In this document: in pieces, positions 32,022 through 37,330 of the stretch
Position numbering within the stretch: the first letter of the stretch is position 1
How the letters are laid out: every line of letters begins with the position of its first letter
NCBI RefSeq assembly: GCF_000737325.1
Contig: NZ_CP011125.1
Location: forward strand, 5,890,001-5,954,000
DNA from: Sandaracinus amylolyticus
GTDB taxonomy: Bacteria > Myxococcota_A > Polyangia > Polyangiales > Sandaracinaceae
Length of the DNA stretch: 64,000 bases
Direction of reading: 5' to 3'
Notes under the pieces: generated by a model
Databases searched by the model: none
What the model was told of the DNA's origin: nothing
Seen by the model: the letters and a program-made list of their open reading frames with translations, nothing else
Made by a program: the position numbers and the translations under genes

Positions 32022-34370
32022 TCACTGCATTCGCATGCGCGCGAGCACCTCGGGTCGCTCCCCGGCGCCGCCATCGCCCAGCGGATCTCGCGAGAGCGCG
32101 ATCACGGCGTCGCGATCGCGCTCGCCGCGGACGCGCTCGCCGCGCGCGAGCATCGCCTCCACCTCGGGCGTCGACGCGAGATCGATCACGAGGTGCAGTC
32201 GATCGGGCCCGGTGTTGATCGCGCCGTGCGGGCGGCTGTTGTTGAACGCCCAGACGCTCCCCGCGGGCATGTGCACGAAGCCACCCGAGACCATCAGGCG
32301 CGCGCCCGGGGTGGTCACGAGCGGCACGTGGATGCGGTGGTGCTCGTCCCAGTGCTGCGTGTTGTCGACGTGCATCCGGATCTGCGAGCGCGCGGGGGAG
32401 AGACCGATCCACGCGAGCGGCGCGCGCACCGGGAACGCCTCGTCGAGCAGCGCGCATACGCGCGGGAGCGTCGCGAGGATCGGCGCGTCGACGTCCTTGC
32501 CGGTGATGAGCTCGTCGCCCGGGAGCGCGCCCGGCGGGCCCGCCCGCAGCACGCAGAACCTCGTACCGCGATGCCACTTCCACAGGCTCGACACGTACGG
32601 CAGCGCGCCCGCGCGCTCGAGCTCGTCCACGAGCGGCGCGACGTCGACCTGCATCGGAAGACGGATGAAGTCGTAGTCCTTCGGGGCGGCGTTCGGGCTG
32701 CGGACGTGCTTGCGCTGGTACATGGCGGCTCGCATCGGAGGCTCCTCTCTGCAGGTGATCGCGGCGACGAGCGCGCCGACGTCGGGCACGCCGAGGCCGG
32801 TCGCGGGGCTCCACGCGCTGGTCGCGACGTAGCCGGGCACGCGCTTCCAGGTGCGACGCCCACGCGCATCGAGCGCGGGAAGATCGAGATCGGTCGCGCC
32901 CTCGGTGATCGGGTGGAGAGAGCGCATCGCGTAGAGCAACGGCGCGACGTGGCCGACGCGCGGTCGATCGACGCGACGTCGCGCTTCGTTCGCGCACGCG
33001 AGGATCGCGGCCCAGATCGGGGCGGCGAGGCTCGTCCCGCCTGCGTCGTCGCGCCACGCGTCGTCGAGCAGCGCGCGGTACGCGTGCGCGGGGCCCCACG
33101 CAGCGAGCGCGACGTCGGGCTGCGCGCGTCCGTGCGGAACGACCGCGGTTCCGTCGCTGCGTGCGTACGACGCAGCGAGCACGTCGCGCTGCCACGCGGG
33201 GATCGCGACGGTCTCGCTGAACCCGCCGCTGCTCGCCAGATGCGGCAGATGCACCGCGTCGCGGATCGCGTCCGAGACCGGTGCGCTCCACGCGCGCTCG
33301 CGCCAGCGCTCGACGTCGATGACCTGGGTGCCACCGACGCTGAGCACGCGGGCCTCGCAGCCCGGGAACGTCGCGTGAGGCGCGAGCGACGCGCACACCG
33401 GTCCAGCGGGCGTGAGCACCCGCGGGAACCCGCCGCACGCGCCCCAGTCGCCGCTCGCCGCGATCACGCTCACGCCGAGCACTGCGGCTTGATCGAGCAG
33501 CGCCGCGAAGCCCTCGCGGCCGTGCACCCGTCGATGCTGTCGCTCGGGCGTGCTCCAGCTGGTGACCGCGATCGTCGGGGCGCGCGCGGCATCGTCCAGC
33601 ACCGCCTCGAGGAACGTGCTCCACGGATCCGCGACCAGCGCGGGATCGATCACGTACACGACGACACGCGCGGCCGGCGCGAGCGCGCCGATCCACTGCA
33701 CGCTCATGGTGGTCTCGAAGCGCGCGCTCGGATCGCTCGCGCACGCGCCGAGCGCGGTGAGGGGCACGAGATCGATCTCGGGAAGCGGTACGTCGTGCGC
33801 GCGCCAGAACCCGTCCAGATCCTCGGCGCGCGGCACCCCGCCGAGCGCCATCACCGCGATGGTCTCGCCGCGTCCTCGCAGCATCGGATCGAAGCGATAC
33901 CCGCGCCGCACGTCCGCGGGCGCGATACCGCGCTCGGGCGGCGCGACGACGCGCTCGGTCGCGCGCACTCGAGACACCGGAGGGGCGACGTGATCGTGGG
34001 CGAGCGCGAGCGCACGCACGCGACCGCGCAGTGGCTCGGGCAGCGAGAGCGCGAGCTCGGGCCCGAGGCGTCGCTCCGCGATCAGCGTGCGCACGATGGC
34101 CGCGCCGAACATCGACGTGAGCGCTGCCGCGTCGGTCGAGACCGAGATCGATCGCGGCCCGTCGACCGCGCGCGCCGCACGCGACGCGCCGTGACGACCG
34201 AGCCATGCGCGCATCGCTGCGCGCTCTCTCGCGTCGATCACGACGCGCTGCTCGAGCGCAGCGCGGTCGAGGTACGCGCCATACTGCGGGCTCTTCGGAT
34301 CCGACACCGCGTCGGCGAGCTCGCGCAGCGCGATCGGATCACGCGGCGCGAGCTCGATCGTCAGCCGCAC
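32022..34370 (-). CDS. S53 (sedolisin)-like domain fused to aspartyl/asparaginyl beta-hydroxylase
   Basis: One open frame of 782 residues. Residues 1-130 resemble the sedolisin pro-domain and 150-540 the S53 catalytic domain: Ser447 in GGTSLAAP and Asp308 in SGDWG are kept and Glu219 is present, but by alignment to kumamolisin from memory the triad Asp is Ser223, and the calcium-site Asp residues are replaced too (HPITEG, WSPATG). Residues 550-782 are a PF05118-like hydroxylase with candidate iron ligands His667, Asp669 and His715. GTG start overlaps the halogenase stop by 10 bases. A good internal start site at 32735 could also give the hydroxylase alone. No signal peptide. Confidence 0.85.
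32733..32750 (-). promoter_or_regulatory. Internal ribosome binding site and ATG for the hydroxylase domain
   Basis: Inside the fusion frame GAGAGGAG is followed after seven bases by ATG (Met546), exactly where the hydroxylase domain begins. This resembles the start of an independent 237-residue hydroxylase gene, typical length for that family, whose upstream neighbour has lost its stop codon. Confidence 0.5.
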
Positions 34371-36523: not shown

Positions 36524-37330
36524 TCAGCGCGTCAGCAGCGCTGCGATCTCTTCGTCCGGCGGATGTCCGTCGGGCGGCGGCGCGAAGCAGAGGCGCGCGG
36601 TCTCGTGCACCGCGATCGCGACCTCTCGTCGCTCGCTCCCGCTGGAGCGCGCCACCACGCGGACCGTCTCCGCGACGTGATCTCCGTCGCTGCCGATCGC
36701 GCTGTGCACGCGCAGGCAGCGCGTCGCGCGCACGCCGGGCGCGAGGACGGCCTCGATGCGACTCACGTCCTCGGCGCGCACGGTCGTCGCGAGGCGCTCG
36801 AGCGCGTACGCGTACCCGACGCAGCGGATCGGATCGGGCGCGGTCGCGTAGCGCGTGAAGATCTCGACGAGGCGCGCTGCGATCGGCGGCATGATCGACG
36901 CGACCACGCGCTCGGCGTCGTAGCCCATCGCCGCGAGATCACGCAGCGCGAGCCGATCGTGGGACGTCTCTTCGCGCGCTCGGTCGCGCGCCCACGTCGC
37001 GAGCGCGTGGCGCCCGCGCGCCTCGAAGCGCGTCGCGGCCTCCTCGAGCAAGCGCGGCGTCGAGTGCGTCAGGTGATAGAGGCCCACGAGGCGCCACGCC
37101 CAACGGACCGGCGTGATCGCGGGCACGAGCTCTTCGCGCGCCGCGGAGAACGCCGCGCGGATCGCGCCGTCGAGCAGCCATCGCGTCGCGCGCTCGTGTT
37201 CGTCGTCGCTCGCGAAGCGCAGCGTCGGCGCGTCCTGCTGCACGTCCGCGCGCACGATCAGCGCGCGCTCCTCGCTCGCCATCACGCGCAGCTGCGGTGT
37301 GAGCTGCGCCCATTCGATCGTCGCGTTCAT
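36524..37330 (-). CDS. Heme-oxygenase-like (putative diiron) oxidoreductase
   Basis: A 268-residue all-helical protein. LVGLYHLTHSTPRLLEEA and REETSHDRLALRDLAAMGYD (residues 82-138) match the pattern of 'iron-containing redox enzyme' proteins with a heme-oxygenase-like diiron fold, with His86/89, Glu120/121, His124 and Asp131 as candidate ligands. Relatives oxidise amino acids, fatty acids or peptides. It lies 111 bases before the short peptide gene on the same strand and may start the operon. No signal peptide. Which residues bind metal and the substrate are not known. Confidence 0.7.
   Translation of the reverse strand: MNATIEWAQLTPQLRVMASEERALIVRADVQQDAPTLRFASDDEHERATRWLLDGAIRAAFSAAREELVPAITPVRWAWRLVGLYHLTHSTPRLLEEAATRFEARGRHALATWARDRAREETSHDRLALRDLAAMGYDAERVVASIMPPIAARLVEIFTRYATAPDPIRCVGYAYALERLATTVRAEDVSRIEAVLAPGVRATRCLRVHSAIGSDGDHVAETVRVVARSSGSERREVAIAVHETARLCFAPPPDGHPPDEEIAALLTR

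What the first reader, a model, noticed from the sequence alone, without database searches (positions are those of the whole stretch)
32022..37330. Candidate RiPP-like locus: diiron enzyme, short peptide, halogenase-like enzyme, degenerate S53-hydroxylase fusion
Four co-directional genes (36524-37330, 36257-36412, 34361-36181, 32022-34370) combine three oxidative enzyme families with a 51-residue peptide that ends in a compact APLTDVNFGF tail. Flavin halogenases, Asp/Asn hydroxylases and heme-oxygenase-like diiron enzymes are each known as peptide- or amino-acid-modifying enzymes, and the order with an overlap between the last two suggests one pathway. I know of no described RiPP class with this set. 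The regulator at 30397 might belong to it. Product and substrate are inference.
Basis: partly seen in the sequence, partly recalled or inferred. Interest (0 to 1): 0.88.

Follow-up and report, generated by a model that had tools for sequence, protein, structure and literature searches.

The report
New myxobacterial RiPP with oxidative enzymes
A tiny gene whose protein ends in a fixed ten-residue tail sits beside several oxygen-using enzymes in a few myxobacteria, and comparison across genomes indicates that the tail is the raw material of an undescribed ribosomally made natural product.

Summary
All four genes are at the stated coordinates. The 51-aa peptide is a real, conserved gene. The same small gene follows the heme-oxygenase-like diiron (HDO) gene in 12 loci of three distant myxobacterial groups (two Sandaracinus species, Nannocystis, and one uncultured family), always ending in a P-L-(T/S)-D-x-N-x-G-F-stop type tail. 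In five uncultured genomes that tail sits on an NHLP (nitrile-hydratase-like) leader, a known RiPP leader type. In Sandaracinus, Nannocystis and one further genome the NHLP part is replaced by a short charged leader. A DNA pattern for the tail hits only 6 of 379 Myxococcota genomes, once each, every time at this gene. In 284 genomes, the flavin halogenase-like enzyme, HDO and Asp-hydroxylase co-occur in the same 7 genomes (S53 in 6), even where the genes are on separate contigs. The S53 part has lost one catalytic Asp in all ten homologues. The fusion to the hydroxylase is specific to Sandaracinus. Chemistry is inferred: Asp beta-hydroxylation plus HDO and flavin-enzyme oxidation of the invariant C-terminal Phe. 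No described RiPP with this enzyme set was found.

The parts
36524..37330 (-). heme-oxygenase-like diiron oxidase/oxygenase (HDO), 268 aa; putative 3H/3C ligands E121, H124, E178, H209, D215, H218
   Evidence: PF14518 E 5e-5; AlphaFold2 model pLDDT 92, best PDB matches 3dde Z 19.1, HrmI 17.5, CADD 16.6, UndA 15.3; residues conserved in 14 homologues
36257..36412 (-). RiPP precursor gene, 51 aa, preceded by an AGGAGAGAGAG ribosome-binding site
   Evidence: homologues in 12 loci at the same position; 0 nonsynonymous changes against the sister species; upstream sequence
36260..36289 (-). conserved C-terminal core APLTDVNFGF (family consensus P-L-[TS]-D-x-N-x-G-F-stop)
   Evidence: alignment A5, tail scoring, genome pattern search
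36215..36249 (-). hairpin (15-bp stem with 14 matches, dG -31.9 kcal/mol) between precursor and FDH genes; probable attenuator
   Evidence: equivalent hairpins of different sequence in all 6 Sandaracinus/Nannocystis loci, T-rich tail in several
34361..36181 (-). flavin-dependent halogenase-like enzyme (CmlS/CndH/PltA-type), 606 aa, K77 and FxxPxSxxG kept
   Evidence: PF04820 E 2e-29; CndH E 5e-52; alignment A4; co-occurrence
32736..34370 (-). degenerate S53 (sedolisin/kumamolisin-like) domain with pro-domain; second catalytic Asp replaced
   Evidence: kumamolisin E 2.5e-43; alignment A7
32022..32735 (-). aspartyl/asparaginyl beta-hydroxylase domain fused to the S53 domain
   Evidence: PF05118 36.2 bits against cut-off 22.6; conserved H122, D124, R134, H136, H170, R179; a separate gene in Nannocystis and f32

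Best explanation
The locus is a RiPP biosynthetic cluster. SHOWN by comparison: the 51-aa peptide is a conserved precursor-like gene under purifying selection whose near-invariant C-terminal decapeptide is the selected part and whose leader is replaceable (NHLP domain or short charged leader). The diiron enzyme, FDH, hydroxylase and S53 protein form one pathway by synteny and co-occurrence. INFERRED: the precursor is made in excess (hairpin attenuator after it) and binds the enzymes through the L-x-V-x-E segment just before the core. The 2OG hydroxylase domain beta-hydroxylates the invariant Asp. The diiron enzyme and the flavin enzyme oxidise the invariant C-terminal Gly-Phe: most likely hydroxylation of Phe or UndA-like oxidative decarboxylation by the HDO, followed by halogenation or further oxygenation by the FDH-like enzyme. 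The S53 protein, which lacks one catalytic Asp, acts as a peptide-binding partner or altered protease at the leader/core junction. AspH or S53 is absent from some loci, so each is an accessory step.
For: Twelve loci carry the small gene beside the HDO gene with the same tail. Five of these precursors have NHLP-type leaders (TIGR03793 E 6e-12 to 5e-9). The tail DNA pattern occurs in 6 of 379 genomes, once each, always at this gene, with 0 hits for the reversed control. HDO in 8, FDH in 7, AspH (strong hits) in 7 and S53 in 6 of 284 genomes, with the same 7 shared. In the uncultured family f32, 6 of 13 genomes have the HDO and 7 do not. FDH and HDO trees agree on the well-supported groupings. 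The peptide has no amino-acid change against the sister species while the enzymes changed. Hairpin after the precursor in 6 of 6 Sandaracinus/Nannocystis loci. FDH catalytic Lys and Ser kept. HDO fold and putative ligands kept. AspH active-site residues kept. Precedent: SrpI, a flavin brominase, modifies the C-terminal Trp of an NHLP precursor and needs only the last part of the leader (PMC10858898, PMC12615548).
Against: No product, enzyme assay or expression data. The core has no Trp/Tyr/His, so ordinary FDH halogenation has no usual target. No exporter, immunity gene or intact protease was identified in the locus. The HDO subfamily also occurs without this tail: in G218 with other neighbours, and on Nostoc plasmids, where a different small ORF follows it. 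TIGR03793 scores are below the curated cut-off. Six of the seven genomes in the co-occurrence count belong to one family, so they are not independent.
Confidence: 0.75

Rival explanations
1. The peptide is the precursor of a fixed small molecule such as a redox cofactor or signal (as PqqA gives PQQ, or MftA gives mycofactocin), not of a variable peptide antibiotic; the C-terminal Phe, with or without Gly, is excised and becomes the product.
For: The core is almost invariant across separate orders while the leader changes completely; PqqC appears among the fold matches of the HDO; the last residue is always Phe followed directly by the stop.
Against: Rare and patchy distribution (7 of 284 genomes) is unlike that of a cofactor; no radical SAM or user dehydrogenase was identified in the locus proteins scanned; multi-residue conservation (PLTDxNxGF) suggests more than the last two residues matter, though it could be recognition sequence.
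Confidence: 0.2
2. The FDH-like enzyme is a peptide hydroxylase of the QhpG/LodB kind rather than a halogenase; all three oxidative enzymes insert oxygen. (A variant of the best explanation, not exclusive of it.)
For: NCBIfam hits to QhpG (E 2e-33) and LodB (E 3e-27); no electron-rich aromatic residue in the core.
Against: Best matches are true halogenases, CmlS and CndH and PltA; the Lys that aligns with the PltA catalytic Lys (K77) and the FxxPxSxxG motif are invariant.
Confidence: 0.35
3. The small protein is not a precursor but a small partner or regulator of the diiron enzyme.
For: It always sits directly beside the HDO gene; in Nostoc and G218 the HDO is followed by other small proteins without this tail.
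Against: Conservation is concentrated in the last ten residues ending exactly at the stop, while the rest is interchangeable with an NHLP leader, a known precursor leader; FDH and AspH track the same tail.
Confidence: 0.12
4. The genes are unrelated neighbours and the small ORF is spurious.
For: Genes are split between contigs in some f32 genomes.
Against: Synteny, purifying selection, tail specificity and phylogenetic profile.
Confidence: 0.02

Closest known systems
Proteusin/NHLP RiPPs with flavin brominase SrpI (SrpE precursor)
   Same: NHLP-leader precursor (in the f32 homologues), FDH-type enzyme, C-terminal aromatic residue; the last part of the leader is enough for SrpI
   Different: Window precursor has no NHLP domain; C-terminal Phe instead of Trp; FDH is CmlS/CndH/PltA-like; HDO, AspH and S53 partners are not described in the srp reports read here
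Thiovarsolin cluster (VarO, heme-oxygenase-like protein in a RiPP; PMC6511847)
   Same: An HO-like protein acting in a RiPP pathway (proposed desaturation)
   Different: Thiovarsolin needs YcaO/TfuA and a repeating precursor; none of these in this locus
HDO superfamily (UndA, CADD, HrmI, BesC, PolF; review PMC13108848)
   Same: Heme-oxygenase-like fold; residues compatible with the 3H/3C ligand set
   Different: Substrate predicted to be a ribosomal peptide; 13-16% structural-alignment identity to the solved members
Sedolisin/kumamolisin peptidases (S53)
   Same: Pro-domain plus catalytic-domain homology, Ser and Glu kept
   Different: Second catalytic Asp (kumamolisin Asp82, numbering from memory) replaced in all ten homologues; fused to a hydroxylase in Sandaracinus
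Mycofactocin and PQQ (RiPP-derived cofactors; from memory)
   Same: Short precursor with invariant C-terminal core; C-terminal aromatic residue in MftA; PqqC has the same fold class as the HDO
   Different: No radical SAM enzyme seen in the locus; different enzyme set

Membership tests
RiPP biosynthetic cluster | genetically encoded precursor with leader and conserved core next to modifying enzymes | tested here: met
RiPP biosynthetic cluster | modified peptide product | not testable with these tools
   needs expression and mass spectrometry
Proteusin / NHLP precursor | NHLP leader domain (TIGR03793) in the window precursor | tested here: not met
   no family match for P0002
Proteusin / NHLP precursor | NHLP leader domain in the f32 homologues | tested here: met
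   top NCBIfam hit, E 6e-12 to 5e-9, but below the curated cut-off
HDO (heme-oxygenase-like diiron oxidase) | heme-oxygenase-like fold | tested here: met
   pLDDT 92 model, Z 15-19 to 3dde, HrmI, CADD and UndA
HDO (heme-oxygenase-like diiron oxidase) | three His and three carboxylate ligands | tested here: inconclusive
   candidate residues invariant or nearly so; geometry and metal not measured
Flavin-dependent halogenase | FAD motif, catalytic Lys, FxxPxSxxG, WxWxxP | tested here: met
   PltA alignment
Flavin-dependent halogenase | halide incorporation | not testable with these tools
   needs an assay
Asp/Asn beta-hydroxylase (PF05118) | domain score above cut-off and conserved active-site His/Arg | tested here: met
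S53 peptidase (sedolisin) | Ser-Glu-Asp catalytic triad | tested here: not met
   Ser and Glu invariant; Asp is S/G/T/A in all ten
Thiovarsolin-type (YcaO-TfuA) RiPP | YcaO and TfuA genes | tested here: not met
   no such domain in the locus proteins
PQQ / mycofactocin | radical SAM maturase and matching precursor | tested here: not met
   none among the scanned window proteins

The most novel reading that the evidence does not exclude
A new RiPP class in which a heme-oxygenase-like diiron enzyme oxidatively decarboxylates or hydroxylates an invariant C-terminal Phe, creating the reactive site that a flavin halogenase then modifies, while a cytosolic pseudo-protease of the S53 family serves as the peptide-binding element; the product is a fixed alkaloid- or cofactor-like small molecule.
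Probability: 0.15. Interest if true: 0.9.

Novelty: new variant of a known kind. Interest (0 to 1): 0.74.

Why it matters
Only about a dozen heme-oxygenase-like diiron enzymes have a proven function (PMC13108848), and the one RiPP case cited there (VarO) has only a proposed role. This family gives a defined peptide substrate with a near-invariant core, natural homologues with and without each accessory enzyme, and two leader architectures carrying the same core. The latter is a natural version of the SrpI leader-truncation experiment. It also offers a conserved pseudo-peptidase fused to a hydroxylase, and a possible route to unusual chemistry on a C-terminal Phe.

Tried and rejected
Chance ORF: rejected by selection, synteny and tail specificity. 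Regulator at 30397 as part of the cluster: kept beside the locus in the sister species L049 but not recognised among the called genes of the Nannocystis loci, and ScfR/RamB-like. FDH structure prediction was too poor to use (pLDDT 54.6), so a C-terminal winged-helix or RRE-like domain suspected from helix order was not tested. The terminator scan found nothing on the minus strand at the precursor, since the T-run in the window is only four T; the hairpin was found by direct comparison. The genome-contig scan found only 3 loci. Plasmid search with the peptide: none; with the FDH: only distant Streptomyces/Caballeronia halogenases. Literature searches for a RiPP combining these enzymes returned nothing matching. 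Heme oxygenases and TenA proteins also score Z 14-16 against the HDO model, so the fold alone does not prove diiron chemistry.

Full report
Observation. Diiron gene 36524-37330, peptide 36257-36412, FDH-like gene 34361-36181, and S53-hydroxylase gene 32022-34370 overlapping the FDH gene by 10 bp. Domain scans give PF14518 (weak) for the first, PF04820 for the FDH, and PF09286 plus PF05118 for the fusion. NCBIfam puts the FDH closest to CmlS, then QhpG and LodB. The peptide has no family match. The genome holding the window is 10,327,335 bp in one contig, the size I remember for Sandaracinus amylolyticus DSM 53668 (memory, not tested); 'Sandaracinus' below rests on that memory.

The peptide is real and conserved. 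tblastn of the peptide found Nannocystis exedens (45% identity) and an uncultured genome G108. Fetching the neighbourhoods of diiron-enzyme relatives gave the small gene in 12 loci: window, sister species G290, N. exedens (two loci), two other genomes of the same genus, G108, and five more genomes of the same uncultured family f32. In those five (G058, G214, G266, G165, G247) it is an 84-119 aa protein whose best NCBIfam hit is the NHLP leader, TIGR03793, E 6e-12 to 5e-9, below the curated cut-off. The tails are APLTDVNFGF (window, G290), APLTDINFGF and VPLTDINFGF (Nannocystis), APLSDFEPGF (G108), EPLSDENPGF, EPLTDENAGF, EPLTDDNAGF and LLGDANPGF (NHLP type).

Specificity of the tail. A matrix trained on the short-leader tails scored all five NHLP-type tails above every one of 8,496 other ORF tails in the fetched loci. 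A degenerate DNA pattern for P-L-(S/T)-D-x-N-x-G-F-stop was searched in 379 Myxococcota genomes. It hit six, once each, every time at the gene next to the diiron enzyme, with no hit for the reversed control. G108 and G247 do not fit the pattern exactly, and the positive Nannocystis genomes were not in that sample.

Selection. Between the window and G290 the peptide gene has 0 nonsynonymous changes in 122 sites and 1 synonymous in 31, while the diiron gene has pN 0.047, the FDH 0.023 and the S53-AspH gene 0.057, with pS 0.15-0.28. The region overall is 91.4% identical. The gene is short, so this alone is modest evidence.

One pathway. In 284 sampled genomes the diiron enzyme occurs in 8, the FDH subfamily in 7, the AspH in 7 with strong hits plus two weak ones, and the S53 subfamily in 6. 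The seven FDH, AspH and diiron genomes are the same ones; the eighth diiron genome is G218. In G058 and G214 the diiron-precursor-S53 genes and the FDH-AspH genes are on different contigs, yet both sets are present. Within f32, 6 of 13 genomes have the diiron enzyme and 7 do not. Six of the seven positives belong to one family, so the counts are not independent events. Diiron and FDH trees agree on the well-supported groupings, with G108 joining the short-leader group (strong for FDH, weak for diiron). In G305 the small gene and the FDH are missing from the locus and the diiron enzyme there has lost Glu121, a putative ligand.

Architecture varies. Nannocystis has diiron-peptide-FDH-AspH (L050) and diiron-peptide-FDH-S53 (L051-L053) loci, and AspH was not found in three genomes that carry the second kind or the remnant. 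Sandaracinus has S53 and AspH fused in frame, in both species. So AspH and S53 look like accessory steps, with the diiron enzyme and the precursor as the core pair and FDH close to it.

Enzyme details. Diiron enzyme: AlphaFold2 model pLDDT 92; matches 3dde Z 19.1, HrmI 17.5, CADD 16.6, UndA 15.3, but true heme oxygenases and TenA also score 14-16. Candidate ligands Glu121, His124, Glu178, His209, Asp215 and His218 are invariant or nearly so. FDH: best solved relatives CndH and PltA; Lys77, FxxPxSxxG and WxWxxP conserved in 11 homologues. AspH: His122, Asp124, Arg134, His136, His170 and Arg179 invariant. S53: aligned with kumamolisin, Glu219 and Ser447 are invariant, but the second catalytic Asp is Ser, Gly, Thr or Ala in all ten, and the oxyanion Asp is Asn in two.

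Expression. Between the precursor and the FDH gene lies a 15-bp hairpin (dG -31.9 kcal/mol), with equivalent hairpins of different sequence in all six Sandaracinus and Nannocystis loci, followed by runs of T in several. The generic terminator scan did not call it. A partial terminator that lets the precursor be made in excess is the natural reading (inference).

Mechanism (inference). The core offers an invariant Asp, a mostly conserved Asn, and a C-terminal Phe immediately before the stop. AspH is expected to act on the Asp; the spacing D-x4-F resembles the EGF-type AspH consensus (from memory). UndA binds its substrate carboxylate at the metal (PMC13108848), which would suit oxidative decarboxylation of the C-terminal Phe; ring hydroxylation is the alternative. 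The FDH would then act on the activated Phe, or act as a hydroxylase. SrpI is a precedent for an FDH acting on the C-terminal aromatic residue of an NHLP precursor, needing only the last leader segment (PMC10858898, PMC12615548). In this family nature has kept that segment (L-x-V-x-E) and lacks the NHLP domain in one branch.

Wider distribution. Relatives of the diiron enzyme lie on two Nostoc plasmids, 48-49% identical, each followed by a different small ORF and without an annotated FDH nearby, and in G218 followed by a 148-aa ORF. The subfamily therefore seems to pair with small proteins more generally; this was not pursued.

Verdict. A previously undescribed RiPP family is well supported. 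The chemistry is open. No paper in the library describes this combination; subscription papers and genomes outside Myxococcota were not covered.

Noticed in passing
37357-38229 (+): Superoxide-dismutase-like ORF ([32 protein letters not shown]...), divergent from the diiron gene; the same arrangement in the sister species (L049 7463-8344).
   Followed up: partly
L023 3837-5003, L024, L039, L040, L041: A TrpD-like (anthranilate phosphoribosyltransferase family, TIGR01245 E 2e-55 for L023) gene lies upstream of the diiron gene in the five NHLP-type f32 genomes; function in this context unknown.
   Followed up: partly
L077 8884-10300; L078 8842-10043: Nostoc plasmids carry a relative of the diiron enzyme followed by a small ORF; in Nostoc sp. 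C052 it has repeats of METTPATVIERQS and shares a segment like LIxNxxEVLxxxExDL with the N. edaphicum ORF.
   Followed up: partly
L042 8277-9593: G218 has the diiron enzyme followed by a 148-aa ORF whose start (WTIIYTLAW...) faintly resembles an NHLP leader; no FDH or AspH of this type in that genome.
   Followed up: no
L027 3994-6924; also L023, L030, L041: A Ser/Thr protein kinase gene (with TPR repeats in L027) lies upstream of the diiron gene or its TrpD-like neighbour in several loci.
   Followed up: no
L054 7600-8732: Nannocystis-genus genome G305 keeps only the diiron gene, with Glu121 changed to Gly, and lacks peptide and FDH beside it: likely decay of the pathway.
   Followed up: partly
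30397-31989 (-): ScfR/RamB-like regulator (PF09856, IrrE-like and HTH domains), kept next to the locus in G290.
   Followed up: partly
28236-30719 (-): SBBP-repeat beta-propeller lipoprotein-like protein (NF047494 E 3e-18).
   Followed up: no
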